From contig NZ_LN868535.1 of NCBI RefSeq assembly GCF_001261775.1, forward strand, positions 418,148 to 482,147: a DNA stretch of 64,000 bases, given 5' to 3'. Shown here piece after piece: positions 11,056 through 61,595 of this stretch. This stretch comes from Anaeromassilibacillus senegalensis (GTDB lineage: Bacteria > Bacillota > Clostridia > Oscillospirales > Acutalibacteraceae). Positions within the stretch are counted from its first letter, which is position 1. Every line of letters starts with the position of its first letter. Both the position numbers and the translations under genes were made by a program. Under the pieces are notes generated by a model, which saw only the letters and a program-made list of their open reading frames with translations, had not been told where the DNA came from and ran no database searches.

Positions 11056-13767
11056 ATGAAAAAGAAAATGATCCCCGTGACCTTATTGGCCGTATTGCTT
11101 TTATCGGGAATATGGTTACTGTTGTCTGTACGCAATATCCATGGCAGCGCCCGGGCCGCCAACTGCACCGGCATGGTGCGCGAGGCATCCCAGCTGCTGG
11201 TCAAGGAAGAACTGTACGGAGAGCCAAACGACGCGCTGATCGACCGTCTGGACCGGATGATCGACGAGCTGGTGACCGGAGAAGGGGAAAACAACCTTGT
11301 CAAACTGGCCGATCCGGGCTATCAAGCCGCGCTGGGGACGCTGAGCGGGAACTGGCAGGCGCTCAAAAATGAGATTTTGCAGGCGCGGCAGAGCGGCAGC
11401 CAGGAGGCGCTCTACCGCCTGAGCGAAACGTTCTTCCAGGACGCCGACCGGGCGGCGTCTCTGGCGGCGGCATATACAGAGAAGCAGGCGCGCCAGGCGG
11501 CGATGCTGTTTTATGTCCTTCTCGGCCTGATCGCCGTGGGAACCTGCGTCTTCGCCGCTTATGCATATCAAAACCGCCGGACGCGCAGGCAGGCGGAGGC
11601 CGCCGCCGCGGACAAACAGAAGGAAAAAGAGACGCTGGAAAAAATGGCCGCCGCGCTCCACTCGCCGCTGGACGATCTTTCGGAACTGATGTACATAGCG
11701 GATCTGGAAACCTACGACCTGCTGTTTTTCAACAAAGCGGGCCTGCGGAACTTTGAACTGGATTCGTATGAGGGCAAAAAGTGCTATCAGGTGTTAAGAG
11801 GGCGGGACACGCCCTGTGAAGCCTGCAGCTCGCATGTATCCCCCGACGGCGACACCTACACCTGGGAGGACACCAACCCCGTCACAGGCCGCCATTATGT
11901 GTTGAAGGACCGGGAAATCCTGTGGGAGGGCCGCCCCGCGCGGCTCGAAATTGCCTTTGATATCACAGAGGCGGAAACCGAAAAGCAAAGCCTGCGGTAT
12001 ACCCTGAAAATGGAAGCCCTGATCATGGACTGTGTGCGCACGCTGTACCAGGGGCACAAGCCGGCGGAAACGGTCCCCAAAATTCTGGAGAGCCTGGGGC
12101 AATTCCTGGACGCGGAGCGAAGCTATATTTTCCTCGTCCACGACGGCCTCGCCTACAATGATTTTGAGTGGTGCAAACCGGGCATCACGCCGCAGCGGGA
12201 CAACCTCCAGTCACTGCCGCTCTCCTTCTTCGACAGCTGGATGCCCCGGTTCAACCGGCGGGAATGCGTCCTGATTCCGGATCTGGAGCTGTTGAAAGAG
12301 TCTTCCCCGGAGGAATACGAGATTCTGCACAGCCAAAATATCCACAGCCTGGTGGCGGCCCCCATGGAATGCGACGGCGTCTTCTGCGGCTGTCTCGGCG
12401 TTGACAATCCGCCGCGGGAACGGCTGACCTATATCAGCACCATGCTGCAAACCCTGTGTTATTTCCTGATGCTCTCTATTAAACGCGCGGAGGATGAGGA
12501 GCAGCTCTCCCGCCTCAGCTTCCACGATACGCTGACCTCCTTCTTTAACCGCAACCGCTTTATCAAGGATTCGGATGCGCTGGAAAACTCCCATATCCCG
12601 GTGGGCGTCGTCTATCTCGACGTCAACGGCCTCAAGGATATGAATGATAAACGAGGGCACGCATACGGCGACAAGCTGCTGATGGAAGCGGCCAGGCGGC
12701 TCAAAGAGGTATTTTATAACGCGGACCTTTACCGGATCGGCGGCGACGAATTTGTTGCGGTCTGCCGGTATATTGAGGAACAACGATTCAACGAGCAGGT
12801 GCAGGAGCTGAAAAACCGGTTCCAGCAGGGCAGCGACTGCTGCGCGGCAATCGGCAGCCAATGGTGCGCGGCGCTTCAGGACATGAACGAAATCACCTCG
12901 CAGGCCGACGCGCGCATGTATGAGGATAAAAAGCTGTTTTATCGAAAAAATCCAACGTCCAAGCGCTACCGGCACCAAAGCGACGACCTGCTGGAGCTTT
13001 CCAACCCCAATATTTTGGAATCGGAGATCAATAAAAACCGTTTTGCCGTCTACATGCAGCCCAAAGTCTCTTCTGTCGACCGCACGGCAATCGGGGCCGA
13101 AGCGCTGATCCGCTATTACTCCGAAGCGGGCGTTCCGGTCCTGCCCGGCAGTTTTTTGCCTCTGCTGGAGGAGGCGGAGACGATCAGCCAGATCGACTTC
13201 TTCGTTTTTGAATCGGTCTGTTCCCGGATCAAACGATGGCTGGACACGGGGAAAGAGGTCTATCCCGTCTCCATCAACTTTTCCCAGCACTCGCTGGCCC
13301 AGCCGTCCTTTGTCAAACAAATCAGCGCCATCTGCGAAAAATACGAGGTCGCGCCCAGGTTTTTGGAAGTGGAAATCACAGAGATGGTTCTGGAATCCGG
13401 CGAATACGACCTGCTGGATTTGATCCATCAGCTGCGGCGGGCCGGTTTTATCGTCGCCCTGGCTAACTTTGAAACAAGCGCCGACGGGGTCCATTTCCTG
13501 AGCTCCGCGGAATTTGACGTTTTAAAGCTGAACAAAGCGATGATTGTAGACGTACTGCAAAACCTCGACACCATCTCATCCATTGTGGATATCTGCCATG
13601 AAAAAGGCATACGGCTGGTCGCGGAGGGGATTGAAACAGAAGAACAGATGTGTGAACTTTGCAAATGCGGCGTGGAGCTGCTGCAGGGCTTCCTGTTCAG
13701 CAAACCGATCTCCATGGAAGAATACGAGGAAAAGTATCTGTCCAAGCCGCTATTAAAAGAGTCTTAA
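11056..13767 (+). CDS. Membrane GGDEF-EAL cyclic-di-GMP protein with degenerate EAL site
   Basis: 903 residues. TM1 about 5-24, extracytoplasmic helical region about 28-163, TM2 about 166-190, a PAS-like part about 205-310 (CYQVLRGRDTPCEACSS), a GAF-like part about 335-475, GGDEF domain about 485-635 and EAL domain about 650-890. The GGDEF motif (562-566) is intact, so diguanylate cyclase activity is expected; the upstream RxxD inhibitory site is absent (YNAD). In the EAL domain, EAL (682-684), INFSQ, EITE, KLNK and EGIE are kept, but the two aspartates of DDFG are Ala803-Asn804 (ALANFET). These aspartates bind the catalytic metals, so phosphodiesterase activity is probably lost and the domain may only bind c-di-GMP. 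It is a lone gene with its own promoter and terminator; a c-di-GMP riboswitch lies at 24.4 kb. Confidence 0.93.
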   Translation: MKKKMIPVTLLAVLLLSGIWLLLSVRNIHGSARAANCTGMVREASQLLVKEELYGEPNDALIDRLDRMIDELVTGEGENNLVKLADPGYQAALGTLSGNWQALKNEILQARQSGSQEALYRLSETFFQDADRAASLAAAYTEKQARQAAMLFYVLLGLIAVGTCVFAAYAYQNRRTRRQAEAAAADKQKEKETLEKMAAALHSPLDDLSELMYIADLETYDLLFFNKAGLRNFELDSYEGKKCYQVLRGRDTPCEACSSHVSPDGDTYTWEDTNPVTGRHYVLKDREILWEGRPARLEIAFDITEAETEKQSLRYTLKMEALIMDCVRTLYQGHKPAETVPKILESLGQFLDAERSYIFLVHDGLAYNDFEWCKPGITPQRDNLQSLPLSFFDSWMPRFNRRECVLIPDLELLKESSPEEYEILHSQNIHSLVAAPMECDGVFCGCLGVDNPPRERLTYISTMLQTLCYFLMLSIKRAEDEEQLSRLSFHDTLTSFFNRNRFIKDSDALENSHIPVGVVYLDVNGLKDMNDKRGHAYGDKLLMEAARRLKEVFYNADLYRIGGDEFVAVCRYIEEQRFNEQVQELKNRFQQGSDCCAAIGSQWCAALQDMNEITSQADARMYEDKKLFYRKNPTSKRYRHQSDDLLELSNPNILESEINKNRFAVYMQPKVSSVDRTAIGAEALIRYYSEAGVPVLPGSFLPLLEEAETISQIDFFVFESVCSRIKRWLDTGKEVYPVSINFSQHSLAQPSFVKQISAICEKYEVAPRFLEVEITEMVLESGEYDLLDLIHQLRRAGFIVALANFETSADGVHFLSSAEFDVLKLNKAMIVDVLQNLDTISSIVDICHEKGIRLVAEGIETEEQMCELCKCGVELLQGFLFSKPISMEEYEEKYLSKPLLKES

Positions 13768-14728: not shown

Positions 14729-17242
14729 TTAAGCAAGGGGCGCCATTTTTTCGTTCAGCACCTGATATAAGCGCGCCAGGTCAATCGGTTTGGCAACATG
14801 GGCGTCCATGCCCGCGTTTTTGGCCGCCAGGACATCCTCCGCAAACACGTTGGCTGTCATGGCGACGATCAAAATACGCTTTGCCTGCGGATGGCCGCAG
14901 GCTCGTATTTCTCTGGCGGCCTCATACCCGTTCATGACCGGCATTTGGATATCCATCAGGATCGCATCATAACAGCCGGGCGCGGAAGCGGCAAATTGCT
15001 CCAGCGCCTGCTTCCCGTCATGGGCGGTATCCACCTTCGCGCCATATGCGGAAAGAAGCTCCACGGCGATTTCCCGATTGAGCTCATTGTCCTCCGCCAG
15101 CAGGAGCCGCCTGCCCGCAAAGGAATTTTCATCCAGAGACACCGCCTCCGGGGCAGCGGCTTCCTGCGCCTCTCCTTCCTGCATGGGCAGGTCCAAATCC
15201 ACCATAAAGGCAGCGCCTTGCCCGGGCGCGCTTTTCAGTGTGATCTGGCCGCTCATGGCGGAAATCAGATTTTTGGCGATGGCCAACCCCAGGCCGGTCC
15301 CCTCGATCTGGCGGACCACCTCTCCGGGCGCCCGCTCAAAGGGGGTAAAAATATGTTTCTGCGTTTCCAACGGGATCCCGATGCCGTTGTCCGCAACCGT
15401 AAACCGGAAGGTCACGGAACCCGCACGCTGCTCCTGTTCCTGTGCGGTAAAGGAAACCGTTCCGCCCTCCGGCGTAAATTTCACCGCGTTCGATAGCAGA
15501 TTCATAAAGATTTGATTCAGGCGCAGCGTGTCGCCCACCAGCTTTGTATGACGGACGTCAACGGTAAACGTCAAAGTCTGTTCTTTCGATTCGCACTGCG
15601 GCCGCAGAAGCGCCTCCAGCCCCTGAAGCAATTCGGAAAGGTCGAATGGTTCGCTGACCAGCGCCAGCTTGCCGCTTTCAATTTTGCTCATGTCCAGCAC
15701 ATCATTGATGAGGCCCAGCAGATGTCTGGAGGAAAGGTCGATTTTATTCAGGCAGTCCAGCACCCGCGCCCGGTCGTCCAGGCTCCGTTTTGCAATGGCG
15801 GTCATCCCCACGATGCCGTTCATGGGCGTGCGCATATCGTGGGACACACTGGAAAAGAAACTGCTTTTTGCGGCGTTGGCCTGCTCAGCCGCTACGACGG
15901 CAGCCGCGATCTTCTCCCGGTCCTGATGCTCCTGCGTCACATCCGTGACGGCATAGAGGCATTTCGGTTCCCCGCCCAGGAGGAACGGGCAGATCAATAC
16001 TTTCAGCCACATATCCCGATGAAGCCGGTCGTTATAAGTGTGCATCTCCCGCTGGCATCCCTCCGCCGGCCACGGCTCCCACAAAAGCGCCTGCAGCTTA
16101 TCCCTGAATGCGCTGGCCCGCTCCTGCTGCGCTTCCTTCTTCAGGAACTCTTCGGCGGAAACGCCCAGAATCCGTCCGCTGTTTTCAAACACATAATCCG
16201 GCGCGGCGGCCTTGTTGTTGAGGATGAAGATAACCGTATCCGTATTCTCCGAAATCGCCTGATAGATGTTCAAAAGAAAGCGGTCGTTTTCCTTCTGTTT
16301 GCGCTGCATGGACCAGTAGAAAAGCGAACCGGCTGCCAACGCCGCAATCACAACGGCGATGATAATGGAAGCCATGACCATCGCTGTCCGGATAATCTGG
16401 GCCCCGTCCTTTTCTACCGCGTCCAGAGAGACCACCGTAACAAGCTGCCAGTGCCGCTCCTCCTGTACCGGCTCAAAGCAAAAGAGCTGTTCCTTCCCAT
16501 CAACACAGAAGACCACGGACCCGGTCGCCCCTGCGTCCAGCGCCTCAATAAAACGCTCAATTTTCTCATCGGAATTATCGGTATGTGCCAGAACATTGCG
16601 GATATTTTCATAGACCTGCTCATAGCTGTAGCGGACCGGCGGGATGACGATTTTACCGTTCCGCCCCAGAATATAACTGTACCCCTCTCCCAGATAGGTG
16701 GTTTCGCCGCAGGCCTTCTGCATGGAATCCGTGGGAAGGCTGGCATAGAGGATCTGACCGTTGAAAAGGACCATCCCAAACAGAACGATGCGGTCCCCGT
16801 CCACACTGATCAGGGTATTCGACATGGCAAAGCCGTCCGCCGCCGTCTGCCGTGCAAAGTCGGCTGGGATTCCTTTTAACAAATACGCGTCGGCTGACCC
16901 ATATATTGTATTGCCCTGCCGGTCAATGATCGTCAAACCGGTGAGCGTGTAGTCTTTGTCAAACCGTTCCAGCAGGGAAGCCGCCGTCTGCCGGTCCAAC
17001 GTTTCAAGAGAGGCCGCCAGGCTGCGCAGGTCCTTCTCCGCCTCTTCCAGAATGGCGGCAAGCATCTGGCTTTTGCTGTTTGTAATCTCCTGAATCACCT
17101 GGACCGTGGTGCTGCGTACGTTGGAACGGATCCCCTGGATGGCTATGATGCCGACCAGAAAAGAGCCTATAAATGAAGCGGCTATCACAACAGCGAGTAC
17201 GATCCGCCAGCACGGATTCCCTTTCCGCTTTTCCCTCTTCAA
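14729..17242 (-). CDS. Hybrid sensor histidine kinase / response regulator
   Basis: 837 residues. TM1 about 12-34, an extracytoplasmic sensor domain about 35-283 of dCache-like layout (coiled start, LTGLTIIDRQGNTIYGS, YSYILGRNGKIVIP), TM2 about 285-309, a PAS-like part about 325-440, HisKA with the phospho-acceptor His468 in SHDMRTPMNG, HATPase_c (NGIGIP, GTGLGLAIAKNL) and a C-terminal receiver domain with Asp764 in ILMDIQMPVMNG and a late AKP lysine. All catalytic motifs look intact. There is no separate DNA-binding output, so the phosphate probably passes to a partner encoded elsewhere. It starts 21 bases after the solute-binding lipoprotein gene, in the same operon, which suggests that the lipoprotein delivers or monitors its ligand. 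Confidence 0.93.
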   Translation of the reverse strand: MKREKRKGNPCWRIVLAVVIAASFIGSFLVGIIAIQGIRSNVRSTTVQVIQEITNSKSQMLAAILEEAEKDLRSLAASLETLDRQTAASLLERFDKDYTLTGLTIIDRQGNTIYGSADAYLLKGIPADFARQTAADGFAMSNTLISVDGDRIVLFGMVLFNGQILYASLPTDSMQKACGETTYLGEGYSYILGRNGKIVIPPVRYSYEQVYENIRNVLAHTDNSDEKIERFIEALDAGATGSVVFCVDGKEQLFCFEPVQEERHWQLVTVVSLDAVEKDGAQIIRTAMVMASIIIAVVIAALAAGSLFYWSMQRKQKENDRFLLNIYQAISENTDTVIFILNNKAAAPDYVFENSGRILGVSAEEFLKKEAQQERASAFRDKLQALLWEPWPAEGCQREMHTYNDRLHRDMWLKVLICPFLLGGEPKCLYAVTDVTQEHQDREKIAAAVVAAEQANAAKSSFFSSVSHDMRTPMNGIVGMTAIAKRSLDDRARVLDCLNKIDLSSRHLLGLINDVLDMSKIESGKLALVSEPFDLSELLQGLEALLRPQCESKEQTLTFTVDVRHTKLVGDTLRLNQIFMNLLSNAVKFTPEGGTVSFTAQEQEQRAGSVTFRFTVADNGIGIPLETQKHIFTPFERAPGEVVRQIEGTGLGLAIAKNLISAMSGQITLKSAPGQGAAFMVDLDLPMQEGEAQEAAAPEAVSLDENSFAGRRLLLAEDNELNREIAVELLSAYGAKVDTAHDGKQALEQFAASAPGCYDAILMDIQMPVMNGYEAAREIRACGHPQAKRILIVAMTANVFAEDVLAAKNAGMDAHVAKPIDLARLYQVLNEKMAPLA

Positions 17243-24170: not shown

Positions 24171-24325
24171 GTGGTTCCTGCAGCGTTTTTTTTACGCAAC
24201 CGCCTGATAATGATTTTAAAACAGGGGCTCCCGGTTAAAAAAATAACAAAAACAGTAATTATTCCCAACAAATACGACAAAAGTTTATGGGACCTTACAA
24301 AGTTCAATAAAAACGATAATACCTC

Positions 24326-24354
24326 TTGCTCTTGGTGGAAATCTCTGGTATACT
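24326..24354 (+). promoter_or_regulatory. Sigma-A promoter ahead of the c-di-GMP riboswitch
   Basis: TTGCTC at 24326-24331, a 17-bp spacer and TATACT at 24349-24354, about 55 bases before the aptamer. Confidence 0.65.
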
Positions 24355-24407
24355 GAGGCCAATCGATAACCTAGTGGATCACTCGAGTATCCAAACCGAA
24401 ACAATTT

Positions 24408-24490
24408 CATGTTTTGGCAAACCTGTCGAAAGGCAGGGACGCAAAGCCACGGGTCTAAGCCGATGAAGGTATGACAGCCGGTTGCAGCTT
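24408..24490 (+). promoter_or_regulatory. Cyclic-di-GMP-I (GEMM-I) riboswitch aptamer
   Basis: The aptamer hallmarks appear in order: GGCAAACC (24416-24423), a GAAA tetraloop, GGGACGCAAAGCC (24436-24448), then CACGGGTCTAAGCC, and a second arm closing near 24486. These are the conserved core and tetraloop-receptor elements of the GEMM-I class that binds cyclic di-GMP. It lies between a promoter and a terminator in the leader of the M60-type protease gene. Whether binding turns expression on or off cannot be decided without a fold. Confidence 0.9.
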
Positions 24491-24525
24491 TGAACGGGAT
24501 TTTTCCGTTCTGAGTTTTTAACTGA

Positions 24526-24571
24526 CGCTCTCAGACTGTCCATTTGCGGACCGGTATGAGGGTGTTTTTTT
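24526..24571 (+). terminator. Expression-platform terminator of the riboswitch
   Basis: CGCTCTCAGACTGTCC (24526-24541) pairs imperfectly with GGACCGGTATGAGGGTG (24548-24564), followed by seven T. A smaller hairpin (GAACGG/CCGTTC, 24492-24510) sits between aptamer and terminator and may be part of the switch. Confidence 0.65.
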
Positions 24572-24647
24572 ATTCCCAAAATCGCACGAATGGGGCAGAT
24601 CGCCGCCCCTTCCGCGTGCAAACTGAAGAGAAATGGAGAGAAAAGAG

Positions 24648-27600
24648 ATGAAACGTCATCAATTATCCAAGGCATTATCCCTGATCCTAACGTTCGCACT
24701 GGCAATCCAGGCGGCCGGCCCGGCCTTCGCCGCCGAACAGCCGCTCACCGGGGAAAAGGACAGCGCATCCTTCACCGAAGGCTACGAGGCGCCGGAGGAG
24801 GAAGCCGCCCCGCTCATCATGGACTATGACACCACAGCGGAAACCGAGCCCGTACAAAACGACGTGGTGGACCTGGCCGCAGAACCGCTGGAGGAAGCGG
24901 AAGTGGCGCCCACCGGCACGGTGGGAAGTTTCTCCGTCCCCGACGCGTATACCGACGCCTATGACGCGGCGTTTGCCGTGCAGGCCGCTTCCGTAGCCAC
25001 AAACGGCGGAAAATACGGATCCAGCGTGGTCACAAACGTGATTGACGGAAATACAAACACCCATTGGGAGACCGGCAAGGCCAACGGCGGCAATTTTGTC
25101 AATCATCTGACCTTTACCTTCGCCGAGCCGGAGACGCTGGGCAGCGTGGTATACTATCCGCGCGTGCAGGGCGCGGCCAACAAGGGCTTCCCGACCGCGT
25201 TTTCCATCTACGCCTCCCAGAGCGACAGCGGGGAGGACTTTTCCCTGGTGTTCCAGGGGACGGCTAAGGCCGCCGCCGGCGGTACACAGATCGCCTTCCC
25301 GGAAACCTCTTTCAAGCGCCTGCGCTTTGTATTTGATACCTGCCAGGCCAACTGGGCCGCCTGCGCGGAAATGAAATTTTACCGCGCCGACCTCCTTCCC
25401 GCACAGGTGGACAAGCTGTTTGCCGACGGGACCTGGAGCGCACTGGCGGACGGCATGACGAACGAGGACGTCGATGCGCTGGTAAACGGCATGGCGGAGC
25501 ATCCCCTGCGCGACCTGTATGCAGACGCGCTGAATCTGGCCGCACAGCTGGCCGACGGCCAGACCGCGCCGGGCGTCACCGTATATGATGTGCCTGCCCG
25601 CGGCCCCTACGGCGACGACATCGGCCGCGCCGCCACCTGGAATCAGCTGTTCCCCTACCAGCCCACCGGCTACTACGCCGTACCGGGCACCACGCTGGAT
25701 GTCTATGTGGAACCCGGCTTTGCGGATGGCCAGTCCGGCTCGCTGCCGCAGATCGTCTTCGGCCAGATCGCCAAGGACAAGAACGGCTGGGGCCGCCGCT
25801 TTAACCTCAAAGAGGGACACAATGTCATCAAAGTGCCGGGCGTCGAGAATATGAACCCGGGCGCGATCTACTTTGTCAACCACAACTACGGCTACACCGG
25901 CATTGCTCCGGACATCCGCTTTGTGGACGCCTCCGGCGGGGACGGCGTGCGCCGCTTCCCGCTCTTCTACCAGGATGACTCCACCGCCAACACCGGCTAT
26001 CTGCCGGACCGCCGCGATGAGGCCGCTTTCCTGGAGGAACTGGAAGCCTATATTCCCACCCTGTCCGAAACCGACGCACAGGCCGCGGCAGGTGAAGGCA
26101 ACTACAACATCTGTGAGCTGGGCTCCGAAAACGTGCTGGTTTCCACCAGCGCCACCGGCGCGCGGAACGGCCTCAAACAGAACGGACTGGACCGCCGCAC
26201 CGGCGAAACCCTGAGCGGCCCCTCCGATATGATGACCCTGCACGAAGAAAACTACAACCACATGATGACCTACGCCGGATACGAGCCGGAGCGCTTGGGC
26301 GAAACCGCCGCTCCCAACCAGTCCGACCCGCTGTACCGCCAGTACCGTCCGATCGGCCGGTTTATGATCCGCGTCTTCTGCCAGGGGCCGTTCGGCTGGG
26401 GCGACGCCGGTTACATCGGCTTTAACGGCGGCTTCTCCGAGAACAACAAGCGCGGCAACGATATGTTCTCCGCCGTGGCCTCCTGCGCACAGATCACCGG
26501 CGCGGGCTGGGGCCTTGAGCATGAGCTGGGCCACCTGCTGGAAGGCAGCCGTGTGGGCCGTGCGGAATACACCAATAACCTGTTCTCCCTGCAGTTCCAG
26601 AACGAATTCCAGGTAGCCAACCGCGTTTCCGCCAGATTCCGCGAGGATATCCTGAAATATAATAACAACGATTATAAACTGGACGCACGTCCCGGATACA
26701 TCGGCGGCAACTTCGTACTGCTCGCCATTCTGTATCAGCTGGAGGCCGTTTACGGCGACCACGGCAACGCCTTCTCCGCCGATTCGGTCTACGCCAAAAC
26801 CCTGCGCTGGTCCCGCGACCACAGCGGACGCCTCGGCGGATTGGAAAACGGCAACACGCTGCACATGAACCGCTTTGCGGTAGCCGCCTCCAACGCACTG
26901 GGAATCGACGTCACCAACCACTTTGAGTACTACGGCATCGAAATCACCGACGCGGCGCGCAAGCAGCTCGACCCCGGCCTGGCGCCGAATACAAAGAAGA
27001 CCTGGCTGGCCACCAGTGCCGCGGACGCCAGGGAGGTACAGACGCTGCCCGAAAACGCGGCCGCTTCTGTGGAACTCTCCCGCAAGGATGGCAAAGCCGT
27101 TTTGACCATGGACGTTCCCGGCGCTGCCGACGGCGCCGTGCAGACCTATGAAATCCTGCGCGACGGCGAATTCGCCGCCTATGCGCTGGCGGGCAACGCC
27201 TCCAACGTCCCTGTCGCCGTCCCGTCCAACCTTTTGACCTGGACCGACGAGAACGGAACCGACGGCGCGGACCATGTTTACACTGTGCGCGCTTACGACG
27301 CGCGTCTCAATGTCTCCGCGGACAGCGAGCCCGTCACCTTCCATGCCAACGAGCCTTACCTTGTGCTGGACGGCTCGACACTGCTCTCCATCCACCAGGA
27401 ATTTGATCCTCTCTCCGTGGTCAAGGCCCACGCCGCCGACGGCCAGGATCTGACCGGTTCCATCGCCATCGCGGAAAGCGATCTGGACGTGGACGCGCGC
27501 GGCAGCTACACCGTCACCTATACAGTTGCCGACGAGGCGGGCAACGCGACATCCCTGACTGTTCCGTTCACTGTCATCAGCGGCTTCGTTTATGCCTCCG

Positions 27601-29159
27601 ACGTGGAAGAGCAGAGCGCCAAGGTCGGCTGGGGCCAGTTCCGGAAGGATAAAAACATCCAGGGCGGCGCGATCAAGCTGCTGAAGGACGGCGCACAGGT
27701 GCCCTTCGACAAGGGATTGGGCGCGCACGCCTCCTCCGAAATCGTCTATGACCTCACCGATACCGGTTACAGCTGGTTTGAATCCTATGTGGGCATCGAC
27801 CAGTCCATGAAGAATACCGCCGCCAAGGCCAAATTCCAAGTCTATGTGGACGGCAAGCTGCGCTATGACAGCGGCGCGATGCTGGCGAATACCCCCATGG
27901 ATTACGTGGCAATTGACCTAACCGGGGCGCAGGAGCTGCGTCTGGTGACCGACAGCATGGGCGCAACTGCCAACGACCACACTGTGTGGGCAGGGGCCCG
28001 CTTCTCCGTGACCAGTTCTGCTCCCGTCATCCATGTACAGGATGTCGCGTTCACGGATCCGGCGGACGTCGATCTGGATGAAATTGCTGCCGCTGTCACC
28101 GCCACGGACGTGGAGGACGGCGACCTGACGGACAGCCTCACCTACGACACCGACTACGTGCCCGGCAAAACCGGCGCGTTTACCATCACTTACTCCGTCA
28201 CTGATTCCGACGGCAACACCACCGAGGCCGAGCAAAGCCTGGTTGTGGTCAACAGCTTTGTTTATGTCAGCGACCAGGACTGGAAGAGCGCCAAGGTCGG
28301 CTGGGGCAGCATCAAGCGTGACAAATCCCTGAACGGCAACGCGATCAAGCTGGCCACCAATGACGGCGTGCAGACCTATGAAAAGGGTCTCGGCATCCAT
28401 GCCACTTCCGAGGTGGTCTACGACCTGACCGGCAAGGATTTCTATTACTTTACCTCTCAGGTGGGCGTGGACAACACCGCCGGCAACAACCTTTCTTCCG
28501 TCGTGTTCCGCGTGTTTGTGGACGGCGAACTGATGGCGGAAACCCCCGTCATGCGCAAGGGAACGCCCGCTGAAACGCTGACCGTCTCTCTGGCCGGCGC
28601 AAAAACTCTGAAGCTGGTCGTCACCGACGGCGGCAACGGAAACGCAAACGATCACGCCAACTGGGCCGACGCGAAATTCCTCACCGCTGTAGCGGAAGCC
28701 GACAAGGCCTCCCTGTCCGAATTGGTTGAGCGCGCCAATGCGATGGACGAATACCGCTATACCGCTGAGAGCTGGGAGGCGTTGACCGACGCCCTGGCGG
28801 CGGCGGAAGACGTGCTCTCCCGCCCCGACGCTTCACAGGAAGAAACCGACGAGGCCCTTGCGGGCCTGACCGAAGCCATGGACGCCTTGGAGACGCTTCT
28901 GGACACCGAAGTATTGGAGGATATCGTGGAGCTGGCCCGCAGTGTGGCGACGCTGGAGAATGTCTCCCCGATCAACACCAAGCACCAGCAGGCCATCGTC
29001 GATAACGTGCTTGCCGCCGTCGCGGGCGCGGAAGAAGCGCTTGCCGACCCGGACCTTACACAGGAAGAAATCGACCGCCAGTATGCCATTGTCCGTTATT
29101 ATCTCTGGGATATGAACCCCGAATTCACCCCTGGCTGGGAGCCCTTCCCGTCCCGGTAA
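24648..29159 (+). CDS. Secreted multidomain M60-type (enhancin-like) metalloprotease
   Basis: 1503 residues. I choose the ATG at 24648 (GGAGA 8 bases upstream; an in-frame ATG at 24633 is possible). A signal peptide ends near AGPAFA. Domains in order: an F5/8-type discoidin module about 98-248; the peptidase region about 310-760 with HELGH at 625-629 followed by E, the gluzincin zinc signature of M60 proteases; an Ig/FN3-like stretch about 800-890; a DUF5011-type Ig repeat; an NPCBM-like carbohydrate-binding module about 978-1124; another Ig repeat; a second NPCBM-like module about 1203-1348; and FIVAR-like helical repeats to the end. No LPxTG anchor. M60 enzymes cut O-glycosylated mucin-type proteins, consistent with the glycan-binding modules. 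Expression is under a c-di-GMP riboswitch. Confidence 0.9.
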   Translation: MKRHQLSKALSLILTFALAIQAAGPAFAAEQPLTGEKDSASFTEGYEAPEEEAAPLIMDYDTTAETEPVQNDVVDLAAEPLEEAEVAPTGTVGSFSVPDAYTDAYDAAFAVQAASVATNGGKYGSSVVTNVIDGNTNTHWETGKANGGNFVNHLTFTFAEPETLGSVVYYPRVQGAANKGFPTAFSIYASQSDSGEDFSLVFQGTAKAAAGGTQIAFPETSFKRLRFVFDTCQANWAACAEMKFYRADLLPAQVDKLFADGTWSALADGMTNEDVDALVNGMAEHPLRDLYADALNLAAQLADGQTAPGVTVYDVPARGPYGDDIGRAATWNQLFPYQPTGYYAVPGTTLDVYVEPGFADGQSGSLPQIVFGQIAKDKNGWGRRFNLKEGHNVIKVPGVENMNPGAIYFVNHNYGYTGIAPDIRFVDASGGDGVRRFPLFYQDDSTANTGYLPDRRDEAAFLEELEAYIPTLSETDAQAAAGEGNYNICELGSENVLVSTSATGARNGLKQNGLDRRTGETLSGPSDMMTLHEENYNHMMTYAGYEPERLGETAAPNQSDPLYRQYRPIGRFMIRVFCQGPFGWGDAGYIGFNGGFSENNKRGNDMFSAVASCAQITGAGWGLEHELGHLLEGSRVGRAEYTNNLFSLQFQNEFQVANRVSARFREDILKYNNNDYKLDARPGYIGGNFVLLAILYQLEAVYGDHGNAFSADSVYAKTLRWSRDHSGRLGGLENGNTLHMNRFAVAASNALGIDVTNHFEYYGIEITDAARKQLDPGLAPNTKKTWLATSAADAREVQTLPENAAASVELSRKDGKAVLTMDVPGAADGAVQTYEILRDGEFAAYALAGNASNVPVAVPSNLLTWTDENGTDGADHVYTVRAYDARLNVSADSEPVTFHANEPYLVLDGSTLLSIHQEFDPLSVVKAHAADGQDLTGSIAIAESDLDVDARGSYTVTYTVADEAGNATSLTVPFTVISGFVYASDVEEQSAKVGWGQFRKDKNIQGGAIKLLKDGAQVPFDKGLGAHASSEIVYDLTDTGYSWFESYVGIDQSMKNTAAKAKFQVYVDGKLRYDSGAMLANTPMDYVAIDLTGAQELRLVTDSMGATANDHTVWAGARFSVTSSAPVIHVQDVAFTDPADVDLDEIAAAVTATDVEDGDLTDSLTYDTDYVPGKTGAFTITYSVTDSDGNTTEAEQSLVVVNSFVYVSDQDWKSAKVGWGSIKRDKSLNGNAIKLATNDGVQTYEKGLGIHATSEVVYDLTGKDFYYFTSQVGVDNTAGNNLSSVVFRVFVDGELMAETPVMRKGTPAETLTVSLAGAKTLKLVVTDGGNGNANDHANWADAKFLTAVAEADKASLSELVERANAMDEYRYTAESWEALTDALAAAEDVLSRPDASQEETDEALAGLTEAMDALETLLDTEVLEDIVELARSVATLENVSPINTKHQQAIVDNVLAAVAGAEEALADPDLTQEEIDRQYAIVRYYLWDMNPEFTPGWEPFPSR

Positions 29160-46904: not shown

Positions 46905-49456
46905 TTATTCTTCTACAGGCGCGTCGGAAACGGCGGCTTCCTGTTCCATCTCTTCGGGCGTCAGCGCGCCGTCGGTGGCGTCGCCATCGTCTTCTGGAAG
47001 CTCATCCGCCTCGTCTTCGTCCTCCTCATGCGCGGTGCGGGCCAGCGTCACAACACGGCTGCTCTCGGTCAACCGCATGACGCGCACACCCTTGCTGGGC
47101 CTTGCGCATTCGCGGATCGAATTGGCGCGGATGCGGATAATCACGCCGTCGCTTGCAATCAGGATGATGTCGTCATCCAGGTCGACCACCTTGATGGCGG
47201 CGACATCCCCGTATTTTTCCACATGATAGTTGGTCAGTCCCTTGCCTCCGCGCGACTGGATGCGGTAATCGTCGATGGAAGACAGGCGGCCATAACCGGT
47301 CTCACTGACAGTCAGCACCAGCCCGCCCTCGCGCAGGATACTCATGCCGACGACGCAGTCGCCCTCCCGGAGCGTCAGCGCCTTCACGCCGCGCGCGGTG
47401 CGGCCCATGGCGCGCACATCCGTCTCACGGAAGCGGATTGCCATGCCCTTCTTTGTCGCGACCATCAGCTCGTCGCTGCCGTTGGTCAGGCGCACCCAGC
47501 AGAGCTCGTCGCCCTCGTCCAGATCGATGCCGATCACGCCGCCCTTGCGGGTGGTGTTGTACGCGGCAAGCGGCGTGCGCTTGATGATGCCGTTGCGCGT
47601 GACCATAACCAGATAGCTGTCCGCGTCGAACTGCGGCACGCGGATCATCGACGTGACGCGCTCGTCCGGCGAGATGGGCAGCAGGTTTGCGATGTTCATG
47701 CCCTTGCTGGTGCGGGAGCCCTCTGGCACCTCGTAGCACTTCAGGCGATAGACGCGGCCCAGGTCGCTGAAGAACATGACATAGTCGTGGCTGTTGATGA
47801 CGAACATCTCCGTCGCCACATCCTCCTCCCGGCGGGTCATGCCGGACACACCGCGCCCGCCGCGCCGCTGGGTGCGGTACGTGTCGGTCTTCTGGCGCTT
47901 GACGTAGCCGAAGTTCGTCAGCGTGAGAACGCACTCCTCCTCGGGAATCAGGTCTTCTATATCGACCTCGCCGCTGATGGCGGCGATTTCCGTACGGCGC
48001 TCGTCGTTGAACTTCTTTTTGACCTCCAGCGCTTCATCCTTGACGATTGCCAGCAGGCGGTCGCCGTTGCTCAAAATATCCTTCAAGTCCGCGATCTTTG
48101 CCAGCAGGGCGGTCAGCTCGTCCTCCAGCTTCTGGCGGTCCAAACCGGTCAGAGCGCCCAGCTGCATCTGTACGATGGCCTGCGTCTGTATGTCGTCCAG
48201 GCCGAAGCGCTCGGTCAGCCGCTGTCTGGCGTTGGAGCGGTCCTTGGACGACCGGATGATATTGATTACCTCGTCGATATTATCGACGGCAATTTTCAAG
48301 CCCTCCAGGATATGCGCGCGGTCCTCCGCCTTTTTCAGCTCAAACTGGGTGCGGCGGGTCACAACGCTCACCTGGAAGGTGATGTATTCGTCCAGAATCT
48401 GCTTGAGCGTCAGCGTCTTCGGCTCGCCGTTGACGATCGCCAGCATGATCACGCCGAACGTCGTCTGCATCTGCGTGAACGAATACAGCTTATTCAATAC
48501 GATCTGCGGGGACGCGTCGCGCTTGACAGTGATCACGATGCGCATGCCCTCGCGGTCGGAATGGTCTTCGATGTTGGAGATGCCGTCGAGGCGCTTCTCC
48601 TTGATCAGCGTGGCGATATTTTCAATCAGCCGCGCCTTGTTGACCTGGTACGGCAGTTCGGTCACAATGATGTGATAGCGGCCGTTCTTTTCCTCTTCAA
48701 TTTCCGCGCGGGCGCGCACGGTGATGCGGCCGCGGCCCGTCGGCCCGTCGCGTAGGCGGCGCGGATCCCCGCACGGCCCATGATGATCGCGCCGGTGGGG
48801 AAGTCCGGACCCTTGATATGCTGCATCAGGTCGTCCAGAGTCGCGTCGGGGTTGTCGATCAGACAGCACATGCCGTCGATGACTTCGCCCATGTTGTGCG
48901 GCGGGATATTCGTCGCCATGCCGACCGCGATCCCTGTGGAACCGTTGACCAGCAGGTTCGGGAAATGGCTGGGCAGGACGGCGGGCTCCTTCAGACGGTC
49001 GTCGTAGTTCGGCATGAAATCGACGGTATCCTTGTCGATATCCTGTAACATCTCCACGGCAATGTGACTCATGCGGCTCTCCGTATAACGATAGGCCGCA
49101 GGGGGGTCACCGTCGATGGAACCGAAGTTTCCATGCCCGTCCACCAGCATATAGCGCATGGAGAAATCCTGCGCCAGACGGACCAATGCGTCATATACGG
49201 ACGCGTCGCCGTGCGGGTGGTAACGTCCCAGAACGGAACCGACGGTATCCGCGCATTTGCGGTACGCCTTGTCCGGGGATAAGTTGTTCTCATACATCGT
49301 ATAGAGGATTCTTCTGTGTACCGGCTTCAGACCGTCGCGCACGTCCGGCAGGGCGCGGGACACGATGACGGACATGGAGTAGTCCAGAAAAGATTTTTTC
49401 ATTTCCTTTTCCAGGTCCACGTTGATAATCCGGTTATTTTCCTGCATTTCTTCCAT
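46905..49456 (-). CDS. gyrA: DNA gyrase subunit A, frame broken by an 8-bp duplication
   Basis: The breakage-reunion part ([54 protein letters not shown], active-site Tyr in [12 protein letters not shown]) is in one frame to about codon 240. The C-terminal part with the GyrA box TQRRGGRG and beta-pinwheel repeats is in another. The break is GCCCGTCG repeated twice at 48735-48742 and 48743-48750. With one copy removed the protein reads [28 protein letters not shown] and would be 847 residues, the normal length. The GyrA box marks it as gyrase rather than topoisomerase IV. Gyrase introduces negative supercoils and is essential, so the duplication is either an assembly error or needs explaining. 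Last gene of the dnaA-gyrA arm. Confidence 0.93.
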
Positions 49457-49509
49457 TTAGAAACCAACCCTTTCCTGCGGGGAACAACCCTCCGCTTTGA
49501 TGGATGCTT

Positions 49510-50055
49510 TTATCGTACGAATTTTTCCTGTAAGCTTTCCTGTAGCAACCGGTGCAGCGTCTCGCAGTCTTCACCGGACAACGCGCGTTTGGGAATATAC
49601 CGGGACTCCCACGGCCCCAAACGCAGTAAAAAGAGGTTTTTGTCCTCATACGCGCCATACAGCAGCGCATAGGGGAGCGCGGCCTCATACCGGTCCGACC
49701 GGATTTCCGCACGGTCCTCATAGAACAGCAGCGTTTGCGCGGTCATTCGTTCCTGCGCGCGGTCGAAAAACGACTGCGCCCTGCTTCGCACAAACAACGG
49801 CTGGATTGCATCGTGATAAAACCCCACGGCAAGCCCCGCCAGCACCAGCAGGGAACACAACAGGGTATTGTAGGGGTCTCCCAACCCGAAAAACAGGCAA
49901 AGGACGAATCCGGTAACAACCATCAGGAACCCGACGGCGCGCAGCGCAAGCCGCTCTTTGGGACTTGCCGCCGCTTCGACCGCGGCAAGCTGATAATCTG
50001 CGTAATCCTGCTTTGTCGGCAGAAAGCTGACGGTCAATTGTGCATGTTCCTCCAA
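49510..50055 (-). CDS. YcxB-like membrane protein
   Basis: 181 residues; TTG start with AAGGAGG at a 7-base spacing. Two TM segments (about 38-58, 63-82) are followed by a YcxB-type cytosolic beta domain: AQTLLFYEDRAEIRSDRYEAALPYALLYGAYEDKNLFLLRLGPWESRYIPKRALSGEDCETLHRLLQESL. Function unknown. Related in layout to the proteins at 50069 and 51553. It is the gene just upstream of gyrA (53 bases) on the same strand. Confidence 0.75.
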   Translation of the reverse strand: MEEHAQLTVSFLPTKQDYADYQLAAVEAAASPKERLALRAVGFLMVVTGFVLCLFFGLGDPYNTLLCSLLVLAGLAVGFYHDAIQPLFVRSRAQSFFDRAQERMTAQTLLFYEDRAEIRSDRYEAALPYALLYGAYEDKNLFLLRLGPWESRYIPKRALSGEDCETLHRLLQESLQEKFVR

Positions 50056-50068
50056 CCGAATCCCTCCT

Positions 50069-50641
50069 TTACCGTTTTGATGTGACGCGGCGATACTTGG
50101 ACGCGAAGGTATTCTGCATATGCGCGGACACGGCCTCGCGCCGCTCCTCCGGAATATTTTTCTTTGCCAGAATCAGCAGATTGCGGTCCCATCCGCCCGC
50201 ACAGACAATATACTCCCGGTTTTCATAACAGGCGCAATAGTCGGTCCAATAAGCGCGGAGCTGTTCGACCTGCGATTCCGCCGCAACGCTGTCGCGGTAA
50301 ACGGAGATGGTCACCGACTCCGCCAACACATGGGTTTCACGAAAGACGGCGGCTTCATGCGCTTTTTTGCGTTTCGGCTGTGTAAAGAAAAAATACGCCG
50401 CCAACAGAAGCGCCAGCCCCGCAAAAACAAAAGGAATCCACGCGGTGGCATACTGGTTCAGATACGCGGGGACGGAAGACAGCGCCAGCGCCGCCGCCGT
50501 CAGACAGATCGCCGCACGGACGCCTTTTCGATTGATGACCGCGCGCATGGAATCGGCAAAGAGCGCCGCCTGCGCATATTCTTCTTCTGTCAGAGTTTGC
50601 TGAACAACGGCGATCGGTTCGCCTTCGTAGAAGGTTGGCAA
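50069..50641 (-). CDS. YcxB-related membrane protein
   Basis: 190 residues; TTG start with AAAGGAG about 11 bases upstream. Two TM segments (about 42-60, 66-87) then a basic loop (TQPKRKKAHEAAVF) and a YcxB-like domain with DRNLLILAKKNIPEERREAVSAHMQNTF. It is 13 bases upstream of the next YcxB-like gene, so co-transcribed. Upstream is dispersed repeat copy 5. Confidence 0.65.
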   Translation of the reverse strand: MPTFYEGEPIAVVQQTLTEEEYAQAALFADSMRAVINRKGVRAAICLTAAALALSSVPAYLNQYATAWIPFVFAGLALLLAAYFFFTQPKRKKAHEAAVFRETHVLAESVTISVYRDSVAAESQVEQLRAYWTDYCACYENREYIVCAGGWDRNLLILAKKNIPEERREAVSAHMQNTFASKYRRVTSKR

Positions 50642-50659
50642 AATGGCAGGACTCCTTTC

Positions 50660-51480
50660 CCTTTTGTAAAAAGTGGACCTCCGGTCGGGACGGTCCGGAC
50701 GTGTAACGTCTTTCGCGCCTCCGGCGGTTTTCCCAGCAAGTCTTTATAAAAAGATGATCTTTTATATCCCACTATACGGGGTATCCACACCTGAGATGGA
50801 ATCGCAGTGGCGGGACGGACGGGACAAGCTCCCGGGGTGTGTTTTACCTTACAGGTTATTTTTAAAATGTGTTTTTCCGCTTTTCTAAAAAGCGGCGGGA
50901 TCAAAGGGCAGCGCCCTTTGTCGTTCTCCGCAGAGAACGAAATTCTTGTTTCTGAGAAGAGCGAGTGGAAACGAGTGATATTGTTGTTTATGAGGCATGG
51001 TGCTGCCTCTGGGGCTTTTCTTTTTAGCCCCGGCTTTCGCCGGGGCTGTACGTCGCTTTGAAAAGCGACAGCAAAAACTTTTTATTTTTAAAAGTAAAAC
51101 AATTTTTATTTAGTAATTTTTAGAAAACTTGATTGCAGATGCAATCTTTAAATCTTATTTGCTTTTGCAAAAGCGGGAGAAAACCGCTGGTTTGCCCTCA
51201 TGTCGGGCGGGCACTTCCTTTCCGTCTTGTCGAAAAGGAAGCAAAGACCGCGAAAGGGGGGCGCGAGAGTGGGCTCCGGATGACTTCGACTCACGCCCCC
51301 CTTACAACCCCCGGTATCCCCATTGGGACGCTTTGCCCAGGGAGGGCGGCGTGCTCTTCATTGCCGTCGGCACTGGAGTTTTCTCCGCTTTATTGGGATG
51401 CTTTGCCAAGGGTCGGCTGGGTTGTTATTCTTTGACAGCAGGCTTCTATTGGGTAGAACCTATATGTTTTTATATTATTG
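50660..51480 (+). repeat. Dispersed hairpin-chain repeat, copy 5
   Basis: GGACCTCCGGTCGGGACGG and CGTGTAACGTCTTTCGC at about 50675, the head hairpins from about 50848 (TTTTACCTTACAGG) to 51110, then AT-rich DNA shorter than in copies 2 and 6, AAACCGCTGG and the GC-rich tail with AAAGGGGGGCGCGAGAG...CTCACGCCCCCCTTAC at about 51255-51305. The tail is diverged. No gene in 50642-51552. Confidence 0.75.
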
Positions 51481-51552
51481 GGCTTTATGAGAAAACCGCC
51501 GCAGATGCGAATGACCTTGTTATATCCCGCGCTGTGCGGAGGGGGTTTTTAT

Positions 51553-52236
51553 TTACTCTTTACTCCGGGATGTTCCCGCCTGAATAATCGCTTCGATTTC
51601 CGGCAGGATATCGGGTTCCACACAGCGCATGGGGAGGATCACCATATCGTCGCCCTTAAAATAGACAACGAGATTTTGCTGGATTACCGCGCTGCGGCAG
51701 GAGCCGTCCAGCGGGATTTTCCATTTGCGTTCGCCGCGGCCCATTACAATTTCGTCGGGGTAGACCTCCATGCAAACCTCTTTGTCATCGGCATTGCGTT
51801 TGGCATCCTGTTTGATGCGGATTCCCGGCAGGAAAATCATGATAAAGATAAACGCCGCGCAGACCGTGGCAAAAAACAGGTTATCCGGCTGGCGGTACAG
51901 GAAGAAGGATACCAGAAAAAACAGCAGCAGGGCAGAAAAGATGCAAAGTTCGACCGCTGTGCGGCGCTTCCGCTTTTGGTCGTATTGCGTCTCCTTCATG
52001 CAGGCGTAAATTTCTTCCTCGCGGAGTATGTACGAAAATTTAAAGCCGGTCACCGTGTCTTTATATTCCTGGTCGGCGCCATCCGCCACCAGCTCGGCTT
52101 CGCTTCCGTCCCACTCCACAGGTTCTTCCTGTTCTTCTTCCGGCTCCGCGGGGTACCCTTCGGACGCGGGGGACGGGTCCCCCTGCCGTTCCGGAGGCTG
52201 CCCGGCCTCCTCGTTTTCCTTTTCAAATGGTTTCAT
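51553..52236 (-). CDS. YcxB-like membrane protein with acidic N-terminus
   Basis: 227 residues from ATG 52236 (GAAGGAG upstream). Residues about 1-60 are rich in Glu, Pro and Gln; two TM segments (about 91-113, 117-138) follow, then a YcxB-type beta domain (VCMEVYPDEIVMGRGERKWKIPLDGSCRSAVIQQNLVVYFKGDDMVILPMRCVEPDILPEIEAII). The third such protein in the gyrase neighbourhood. It starts 47 bases after gyrB and is probably co-transcribed with it. Confidence 0.72.
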   Translation of the reverse strand: MKPFEKENEEAGQPPERQGDPSPASEGYPAEPEEEQEEPVEWDGSEAELVADGADQEYKDTVTGFKFSYILREEEIYACMKETQYDQKRKRRTAVELCIFSALLLFFLVSFFLYRQPDNLFFATVCAAFIFIMIFLPGIRIKQDAKRNADDKEVCMEVYPDEIVMGRGERKWKIPLDGSCRSAVIQQNLVVYFKGDDMVILPMRCVEPDILPEIEAIIQAGTSRSKE

Positions 52237-52283
52237 TTGGCTGTTTCGCTCCTTCAATCTTGTAAAAGGTATTTCCACAATCG

Positions 52284-54242
<1,959 letters not shown>

Positions 54243-54299
54243 TCAAATGTTACTCCATTCATCGGCGGAAACAGGTGGTTTTCGCCGTCCTTCCATTCG

Positions 54300-54746
54300 C
54301 TAAAGCGGTCTCCGGGTTCCGCCGTTCCGCGGCGGCGGGGTCCTTCGCACCGGCGCGTTTTGCCGCGGCGCCTGTTTCCGTATGGGCGCGCGCTCCGGAT
54401 TCGCCGGATGCCGCCGGAGTTCCGACGGTTGCCTCTTTGGCACCGGAGGCCGCAGCTGCACAAAGAACGGACTGGCCAGAAAGAAAAGCAAAAACGGCAG
54501 CACGATCCAGAGCAGCGCGAGAAAATCAAATTCCCGCACAAACGCCACCAGTACCAGAAACAACACCGCGCTGACGCCCGCCGCGACGATTGCCAGAATA
54601 TACAGCAGCCGGTTCAGCACCACGTTGGAACAGGTCCCGCACCTGCCGCAGCGAAACTCTCCATGCGTTTTTACCGCCCACGCGCGGAACCAATTCAATC
54701 TTCTGCCGCAGCACGGGCATTTCGGCAACCCGAATTTCACCATCAT
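54300..54746 (-). CDS. Zinc-ribbon membrane protein
   Basis: 148 residues; GGGAGAAGGA precedes ATGATG. Two CxxC pairs near the N-terminus (CPCC at about 10-13, CGRC at about 33-36, plus a nearby Cys) form a zinc ribbon; two TM segments at about 47-68 and 74-97; then a Pro/Arg-rich tail (KRQPSELRRHPANPERAPIRKQAPRQNAPVRRTPPPRNGGTRRPL), probably flexible and basic. Inserted between remB and gyrB, where B. subtilis has none. Unknown function; its position suggests co-expression with gyrB. Confidence 0.7.
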   Translation of the reverse strand: MMVKFGLPKCPCCGRRLNWFRAWAVKTHGEFRCGRCGTCSNVVLNRLLYILAIVAAGVSAVLFLVLVAFVREFDFLALLWIVLPFLLFFLASPFFVQLRPPVPKRQPSELRRHPANPERAPIRKQAPRQNAPVRRTPPPRNGGTRRPL

Positions 54747-54758
54747 TTCCTTCTCCCT

Positions 54759-55031
54759 TTACACGTTTGCGATCTCGTCCATGTAGCCGGTGCGCTTGAG
54801 CAGCGTCGCCGAAGAGATCTGCGAAATATAAACGGTTTCTTTCCCATGTTTGTCACAGCACAGCACAAAGGATTTCGGCAGTTCCATGCTCACATTGAAC
54901 ACCTTGCCGCTCTTTTGCACGTCCGCCAGATAGTTGCGCGTCGTTTTAGAAATGGTGGACGTCTCCATATTGAAGATGCCGACGATCTCGTCAACCCGGA
55001 CCACTGTGTCCTGTCCCAGGTGTAGATACAT
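54759..55031 (-). CDS. remB: Extracellular matrix regulator RemB / YaaB (DUF370)
   Basis: 90 residues from ATG 55031, GGGGAAA upstream. [80 protein letters not shown] is the DUF370 family; in B. subtilis the recF-gyrB gap holds yaaB (remB), which affects biofilm matrix expression. The start overlaps the recF 3' end by 41 bases, in a different frame. A DNA-binding role is known for the related RemA only. Confidence 0.88.
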   Translation of the reverse strand: MYLHLGQDTVVRVDEIVGIFNMETSTISKTTRNYLADVQKSGKVFNVSMELPKSFVLCCDKHGKETVYISQISSATLLKRTGYMDEIANV

Positions 55032-56112: not shown

Positions 56113-56302
56113 CGTTATAGACGGCGCGGTCACCCGGCCGCATCTTTTTGCCGCGCATTTCGCACGGCTCGCCGTTGACCAGCACATCCCCGGCCTGGAT
56201 CACCCATTTGGCGCGGCCGCCGGTATCCACGGCGCCGCCGAGTTTCAATAACGCATCCAGACGAATGAATTCGGTATCGATTTGGATTTTTTCTGTCTTC
56301 AT
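56063..56302 (-). CDS. yaaA: S4-domain RNA-binding protein YaaA/YlmH-like
   Basis: 79 residues from ATG 56302. [49 protein letters not shown] is a complete S4 domain, placed between dnaN and recF as yaaA is in B. subtilis (there implicated in ribosome assembly). It is here separated from dnaN by a 1.25-kb repeat instead of a few bases. Confidence 0.93.
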
Positions 56303-56309
56303 TGTTGTT

Positions 56310-58666: not shown

Positions 58667-58723
58667 GATTTCACCCTTTTTTCTTCGCGCGGACGGGATT
58701 TGCCTGCCGATATGGTTATACAA

Positions 58724-59180: not shown

Positions 59181-59184
59181 AGGG

Positions 59185-61444: not shown

Positions 61445-61595
61445 TTGTTGAACCTCCGTGTTGTATAATCGTCCCGGCCTGCTGGTGCAGGCCTGTAAAA
61501 CCGCGCCGGACGGCGTCTCAGCGCCCCGCCTGATACGGGACCGCCCGGCGTTCCGCCGTTTTTTCACAGGGGTGCCATCAGACAGTATATATCTT

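What the first reader, a model, noticed from the sequence alone, without database searches (positions are those of the whole stretch)
24326..24648. c-di-GMP riboswitch controls a secreted mucin-type metalloprotease
Promoter, GEMM-I aptamer, terminator with a U7 tract, and gene follow in order. Regulation of an M60 protease with glycan-binding modules by c-di-GMP would link surface attachment or mucin degradation to the second messenger, comparable to the c-di-GMP-controlled Zmp1/adhesin switch of Clostridioides difficile.
Basis: partly seen in the sequence, partly recalled or inferred. Interest (0 to 1): 0.6.

Follow-up and report, generated by a model that had tools for sequence, protein, structure and literature searches.

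The report
Signal-molecule RNA switch before secreted mucin-type protease
A gut-type bacterium carries a standard cyclic-di-GMP-sensing RNA switch in front of a gene for a secreted, mucin-cutting-type protease, and the same pairing recurs in Clostridium, Eubacterium, Paenibacillus and Clostridioides, so the link between this signal and such proteases looks like a real and largely unremarked regulatory theme.

Summary
Window 24406-24489 is a full-length c-di-GMP-I (GEMM-I) aptamer (71.5 bits; cut-off 35). It lies between a conserved promoter-like block and a strong U7 terminator, ahead of a secreted ZmpA/B/C-like M60 protease with CBM32, two CBM51/NPCBM and FIVAR domains and an intact HELGH...E site.

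It is not a one-off. A related species has two tandem M60 genes, each with a copy of this leader. GEMM-I also sits directly before M60 genes in Clostridium, Eubacterium, Paenibacillus and Clostridioides. In 80 M60 loci, all 14 aptamers lie upstream on the gene's strand. On the M60 tree the pairing needs at least 8 gains or losses. C. difficile CD2797 (published as c-di-GMP-repressed through a class I riboswitch) is probably this kind of M60 gene; I did not match its sequence.

Switch direction is inferred. An antiterminator between the aptamer's 3' strand and the terminator's 5' arm forms before the terminator in three leaders, and no M60 leader shows the clear ON layout at its main terminator. 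Energy controls (aptamer swaps, shuffles) did not show specificity. Best reading: an OFF switch. Known RNA class, known protease family; the recurrent pairing is the new part.

The parts
24326..24354 (+). Promoter-like block: TTGCTC, 17 nt, TATACT with TGG extension; start of transcription near 24361 (inferred)
   Evidence: Read from sequence; below the scanner's threshold; both hexamers invariant in three related leaders
24376..24392 (+). Small conserved hairpin in the 5' leader (GGAT.AC UCGA GT.ATCC), role unknown
   Evidence: Conserved apart from one position in three leaders; present in the MFE of the own leader
24406..24489 (+). c-di-GMP-I (GEMM-I) aptamer; G20-equivalent 24416 and A47-equivalent 24443 present (c-di-GMP type)
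   Evidence: RF01051 71.5 bits, full length; 87.4 bits with the session's model, which was built partly from it; meaning of the Vc2 positions from own knowledge
24486..24516 (+). Hairpin 1 (AGCUU.GAACGGGA UUU UUCCGUUC.GAGUU), directly after the aptamer; apical stem of the proposed antiterminator
   Evidence: Folds; both arms change together between species (GAACGG/CCGTTC to GGG-GGG/CCGCCC)
24468..24484 (+). Antiterminator 5' strand, GGU-a-UGA-c-AGC-CGGUUG, part of the aptamer's 3' half (inferred)
   Evidence: Constrained and length-by-length folding of three leaders
24519..24537 (+). Antiterminator 3' strand, UAACUG-ac-GCU-c-UCA-g-ACU, overlapping the terminator's 5' arm (inferred)
   Evidence: invariant in three leaders while the terminator's 3' arm differs
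24524..24571 (+). Intrinsic terminator: hairpin 24524-24566, U tract 24565-24571
   Evidence: Hairpin about -21 kcal/mol; region z -6.5
24635..24638 (+). Shine-Dalgarno GGAG, 9 nt before ATG 24648
   Evidence: Sequence
24648..29159 (+). Secreted M60 (gluzincin) glycopeptidase: signal peptide, CBM32/F5_F8, M60-like_N, M60 with HELGH...E, Ig-like, two NPCBM/CBM51, FIVAR; no sortase motif seen at the C terminus
   Evidence: (closest solved chain 7js4, E 1.9e-123)

Best explanation
A transcription-attenuating GEMM-I riboswitch that senses c-di-GMP and most likely turns OFF a secreted M60 O-glycopeptidase. Proposed mechanism: without ligand, the aptamer's 3' half (24468-24484) pairs, by zipping down from hairpin 1, with the 5' arm of the terminator (24519-24537) as soon as that arm is made, so polymerase reads through and the protease is produced. 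With c-di-GMP bound, that strand is held in the aptamer, the 24524-24571 terminator forms, and transcription stops. At low c-di-GMP (motile or dispersing state) the cell secretes the protease; at high c-di-GMP (sessile state) it does not. Shown by computation: aptamer, terminator, gene, and the recurrence of the pairing. Inferred: antiterminator, direction of switching, substrate.
For: Aptamer 71.5 bits. Terminator region z -6.5. Alternative structure with the aptamer 3' strand on the terminator 5' arm: its inner helices are the predominant state (mostly 0.7-0.98) from just after the 5' arm is made until shortly before the terminator's 3' arm is complete, in all three leaders. The main terminator of the M60 leaders lies downstream of the aptamer, whereas leaders with the opposite layout have the aptamer 3' strand as the terminator's 5' arm and shift the other way, +5 to +13 kcal/mol. 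Several Clostridium, Paenibacillus and Clostridioides M60 leaders carry a post-aptamer AAAGAG element complementary to CUCUU(U) in the terminator 5' arm. Class I switches in C. difficile are reported as OFF (PMC6366702, PMC6200980), including Cdi-1-2 before CD2797 (-7.15 fold), which is probably the M60 gene held here as L100/L177. Fourteen GGDEF domains in the genome.
Against: At full length the terminator wins at equilibrium even without ligand (0.68-0.99), so the model needs co-transcriptional kinetics. The ligand-like shift (-5 to -8 kcal/mol) is not specific: foreign aptamers give a mean of -4.5 with the own terminator, and 4 of 13 match or exceed the own one. Core-to-arm pairing is no better than with shuffled arms (46, 17 and 24 of 100). 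The three leaders are too similar for covariation in the antiterminator. Hairpin 1 could itself act as a weak terminator starting at the aptamer's end. PMC6366702 warns against carrying direction over between species.
Confidence: 0.68

Rival explanations
1. ON switch: without ligand the extended hairpin 1 (CGGUUG/UAACUG) unfolds the aptamer, and the downstream terminator, or hairpin 1 itself with its U5 run, stops transcription; c-di-GMP binding removes hairpin 1's lower stem and lets polymerase through.
For: Hairpin 1 starts right after the aptamer and has a U-rich 3' arm. The equilibrium fold without ligand contains hairpin 1 plus the terminator. Clear ON layouts exist in other genomes of the family or order (L012, L014, L019, L020, L026). 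Bc2 of Bacillus thuringiensis is a class I ON switch (PMC6366702).
Against: The upper part of hairpin 1 does not need the aptamer strand, so it can form with or without ligand. The main terminator does not overlap the aptamer. The shift for the main terminator is negative in the M60 leaders with a clear terminator, except L084 where it is zero. C. difficile Cdi-1-2 is OFF (PMC6200980).
Confidence: 0.2
2. The aptamer binds c-di-GMP but exerts little control in vivo; the leader is a mostly constitutive attenuator or mainly yields a short leader RNA.
For: Five of 12 class I elements in C. difficile 630 had no regulated downstream gene (PMC6200980). The terminator dominates both states at equilibrium.
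Against: The leader is kept at about 89% DNA identity before two M60 genes in a second species, one of which has an exchanged catalytic domain. Repeated association on the M60 tree.
Confidence: 0.1
3. The adjacency of aptamer and protease gene is chance or phylogenetic inertia with no functional meaning.
For: GEMM-I is common in the class (170 of 393 genomes), and most M60 genes lack it.
Against: All 14 aptamers found in 1.09 Mb around 80 M60 genes are on the gene's strand and upstream, about 70-330 nt before the first plausible start codon (the other D33t1 aptamer precedes the tandem copy). At roughly 0.5 aptamers per Mb (my estimate) far fewer than one would be expected there. At least 8 gains or losses on the tree.
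Confidence: 0.02

Closest known systems
C. difficile Cdi-1-2 riboswitch and CD630_27970 (CD2797, 'calcium-binding adhesion protein')
   Same: Class I aptamer before a large secreted or surface protein; OFF with c-di-GMP (RNA-seq -7.15 fold, qRT-PCR 0.24; PMC6200980). The Clostridioides gene held here in the same setting encodes an M60 domain with HEIGH plus EF-hand/dockerin Ca-binding repeats.
   Different: Identity of CD2797 with that gene rests on size, Ca-binding annotation, riboswitch and cell-wall-protein neighbours, not on its own sequence. Catalytic domains only about 20% identical to the window's; other accessory domains and another leader platform.
C. difficile Cdi-1-12 riboswitch and zmpI/PPEP-1 (CD2830)
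   Same: Class I OFF riboswitch before a secreted zinc metalloprotease (PMC6200980, PMC11477304).
   Different: PPEP-1 is a small Pro-Pro endopeptidase of another family that releases the cell's own adhesins; the protein here is a multi-domain M60 glycopeptidase of about 1500 residues with carbohydrate-binding modules.
Clostridium perfringens ZmpA/ZmpB/ZmpC-type M60 glycopeptidases (7js4, 7jfs, 5kdj, 6xsz)
   Same: CBM32, M60-like N, M60, Ig-like and CBM51 parts; E 1.9e-123 to 7js4.
   Different: No c-di-GMP riboswitch was looked for there; the substrate of the window protein is untested.
Bacillus thuringiensis Bc2 riboswitch and cap (collagen adhesion protein)
   Same: Class I aptamer with terminator control of a surface-protein gene (PMC6366702).
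   Different: ON switch; an adhesin, not a protease.

Membership tests
c-di-GMP-I (GEMM-I) riboswitch, RF01051 | Covariance-model score over the curated cut-off, full length | tested here: met
   71.5 bits against 35, positions 1-87 of 87
c-di-GMP-I (GEMM-I) riboswitch, RF01051 | Ligand-contact and tertiary nucleotides: G20 (c-di-GMP type, not A20), A47, GNRA tetraloop | tested here: met
   G at 24416, A at 24443, CGAAAG loop, read; the meaning of these positions is from own knowledge of the Vc2 structure
c-di-GMP-I (GEMM-I) riboswitch, RF01051 | Expression platform that changes with ligand | tested here: inconclusive
   Terminator clear; antiterminator forms first in three leaders, but swap and shuffle controls are not specific
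c-di-GMP-I (GEMM-I) riboswitch, RF01051 | Binds c-di-GMP and controls expression | not testable with these tools
   Needs in-line probing and reporter assays
Peptidase M60 (PF13402) O-glycopeptidase | Pfam score over the cut-off and HExxH with a downstream Glu | tested here: met
   30.9 bits against 25.8; HELGH...E...NN aligned with eight other M60 domains
Peptidase M60 (PF13402) O-glycopeptidase | Cleaves O-glycoproteins or mucin | not testable with these tools
   Inferred from ZmpA/B/C homology and from papers on M60 O-glycopeptidases (e.g. PMC13355702)
Zmp1/PPEP-1-type protease | Same peptidase family as PPEP-1 | tested here: not met
   Pfam and PDB searches give M60 and ZmpA/B/C, nothing of the PPEP type

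The most novel reading that the evidence does not exclude
Control of secreted M60 O-glycopeptidases by GEMM-I riboswitches is a widespread, repeatedly gained module of Firmicutes that shuts off mucin-type glycoprotein cleavage at high c-di-GMP, and C. difficile CD2797, so far called a calcium-binding adhesin, is one of these proteases.
Probability: 0.6. Interest if true: 0.65.

Novelty: new member of a known kind. Interest (0 to 1): 0.5.

Why it matters
GEMM-I riboswitches and M60 mucin-type proteases are each well known, but I found no paper in the held library that joins them (no paper holds c-di-GMP, riboswitch and M60 as whole words; none holds Clostridioides difficile with Peptidase M60). 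The recurrent pairing suggests that c-di-GMP level decides when gut and soil Firmicutes release enzymes against O-glycosylated proteins. It also suggests a testable biochemical role for C. difficile CD2797, a c-di-GMP-controlled surface protein described in the held papers only as an adhesion protein.

Tried and rejected
my first 'terminator forbidden' folding was wrong (the constraint stripped all pairing from the arm), and one search failed the same way; both were replaced with soft penalties. The ligand-like shift as proof of an OFF switch: rejected after the aptamer-swap control. Core-to-arm pairing energy against shuffles: not significant for the window leader. GCCGGUU pairing with the terminator's 3' arm: the strongest single helix, but poor when forced and formed too late. 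Protein P0001 in genome contigs: nothing; an alignment of five M60 domains worked. An RNA model on the automatic structure had only 8 pairs and was replaced by one on the Rfam pairs. Synteny of the Clostridioides M60 gene with zmpI: the stretch after the other aptamer in G314 is withheld (reads N), so it was left. One paper search ('enhancin') returned only unrelated 'enhancing' papers.

Full report
WHAT IS THERE. The window lies in a 3.51 Mb genome in 12 contigs. Reading 24300-24660 gives, in order: an extended -10 promoter-like block, a GEMM-I aptamer, a hairpin with a U-rich 3' arm, a strong terminator with U7, a ribosome-binding site and the start codon of a 1503-residue secreted protein. 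The aptamer scores 71.5 bits against a cut-off of 35 and is the only Rfam hit at the gathering cut-off in the window. The promoter falls below the simple scanner's threshold, but its hexamers are invariant in three related leaders. The 24478-24573 stretch folds far better than shuffles (z -6.5). The nucleotides that set c-di-GMP preference in the Vc2 structure (G20, A47; own knowledge) are present at 24416 and 24443.

THE GENE. Pfam gives F5/8 type C (CBM32), M60-like N (below its cut-off), M60 (30.9 bits, cut-off 25.8), Ig-like, two NPCBM (CBM51) and FIVAR. The closest solved chains are ZmpA/B/C-type M60 enzymes, 7js4 at E 1.9e-123. The catalytic HELGH...E is intact. The genome has 14 GGDEF domains, one of them in this window with EAL (11056-13767), and two more GEMM-I aptamers.

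CONSERVATION IN THE GENUS. A same-genus genome (G002; its contig length equals that of NZ_JADPEG010000003.1, Clostridium sp. D33t1_170424_F3) has two tandem M60 genes, each with its own copy of promoter, aptamer, hairpin 1 and terminator at about 89% DNA identity. Hairpin 1 changes on both arms between the species. The terminator's 5' arm is invariant while its 3' arm varies, as expected if the 5' arm has a second partner, although the sequences are too close for a strong test. In the second tandem copy the catalytic part is mostly 22-37% identical to the window protein, while most of the C-terminal third is 66-96%: the catalytic module was exchanged and the regulated frame kept.

RECURRENCE. 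Among 393 Clostridia genomes 32 have M60 matches and 170 have GEMM-I. Scanning about 4-7 kb upstream of the 29 other over-cut-off M60 matches found GEMM-I directly before six, in three further family codes. A scan of named genomes gave 80 M60 loci; a session model found 14 aptamers in 13 of them, all on the gene's strand and upstream: Clostridium saudiense, C. tertium, C. paraputrificum, Clostridium sp. D53t1 and D33t1 (two), six Paenibacillus, Eubacterium aggregans and Clostridioides difficile HC132. Some of these are the same organisms as the numbered genomes. On a tree of 71 M60 domains the aptamer label needs at least 8 changes; it is clustered (0 of 500 shuffles as low) but not one clade. 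So the pairing has been gained, or lost, many times. The window's own branch is long and its place in the tree is unsure.

LINK TO C. DIFFICILE. The C. difficile HC132 protein (L177) and the one in a single-contig Clostridioides-like genome (L100) are 91% identical. Both have M60, F5/8, fn3 and EF-hand/dockerin repeats and a GEMM-I about 120 nt before the start codon; CWB2 cell-wall proteins lie downstream in the single-contig genome (L184). Published work places class I riboswitch Cdi-1-2 before CD630_27970, a 'calcium-binding adhesion protein' with a 5964 bp gene next to the genes for Cwp10 and Cwp11, repressed 7.15-fold by c-di-GMP (PMC6200980; PMC8428550). I infer that CD2797 is this M60 gene; I did not align its sequence. 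If so, the direction of one GEMM-M60 switch is already measured, as OFF.

MECHANISM. At equilibrium and full length the terminator dominates with or without ligand, so equilibrium alone does not show a switch. With the terminator forbidden, all three leaders adopt one long hairpin in which aptamer GGU-a-UGA-c-AGC-CGGUUG (24468-24484) pairs with UAACUG-ac-GCU-c-UCA-g-ACU (24519-24537), hairpin 1 being its tip. Folding length by length, this pairing is the predominant state once the 5' arm is made and until the terminator's 3' arm is nearly complete, which suits an OFF switch decided during transcription. In contrast, five leaders from relatives use the aptamer's 3' strand as the terminator's 5' arm (ON layout), with shifts of +5 to +13 kcal/mol. 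The controls are sobering: foreign aptamers give similar negative shifts, and shuffled arms pair as well. Several Clostridium, Paenibacillus and Clostridioides leaders share an AAAGAG element after the aptamer that complements CUCUU(U) in the terminator 5' arm, again consistent with OFF. Overall I put OFF at about 0.7.

NOVELTY. The RNA class and the enzyme family are known; class I control of a secreted protease is known (zmpI). The repeated GEMM-I/M60 pairing, and the likely identity of CD2797, were not found in the held papers, which do not include most subscription journals.

Noticed in passing
L053/L118 (Clostridium sp. D33t1) against window 24648-29159: Tandem M60 paralogue with near-identical riboswitch leader and flanking modules but a replaced catalytic domain (mostly 22-37% identity in the middle, 66-96% over most of the C-terminal third).
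   Followed up: partly
L002 1501-1588 (own genome C9:210337-210424, - strand): Second GEMM-I of the genome lies before a secreted protein that looks transglutaminase-like by eye; the leader is conserved in G002 (L031).
   Followed up: partly
L003 1501-1583 (own genome C12:790358-790440): Third GEMM-I precedes a roughly 60-residue helix-turn-helix-like ORF, with a phosphoadenosine-phosphosulfate-reductase-like gene further down (by eye).
   Followed up: no
L072 3839-3925 (G443), also L008, L009, L022, L029: Aptamers with A instead of G at the position equivalent to G20, the change associated with cGAMP-preferring GEMM-Ib; the one in L072 precedes an M60 gene.
   Followed up: no
L084, L104, L108, L117, L111-L116: Clostridium and Paenibacillus M60 leaders share an almost identical post-aptamer element (CAAAGAGURY...CUUUUU) and terminator 5' arm, suggesting common descent or transfer of the whole cassette.
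   Followed up: partly
window 24376-24392: Short hairpin between promoter and aptamer, almost invariant in three leaders, of unknown role.
   Followed up: no
window 48662-61567: gyrA, gyrB, recF-like, dnaN and dnaA: the replication-origin region lies about 20-35 kb from the M60 gene.
   Followed up: no
window 11056-13767 and 14729-17242: GAF-GGDEF-EAL protein and a hybrid histidine kinase with Cache domain within 15 kb of the riboswitch; possible local c-di-GMP enzymes or inputs.
   Followed up: no
G024 contigs C22, C28, C29 (L008, L029): Closely spaced tandem GEMM-I aptamers, roughly 215-250 nt apart, several pairs in one genome of the same family.
   Followed up: no
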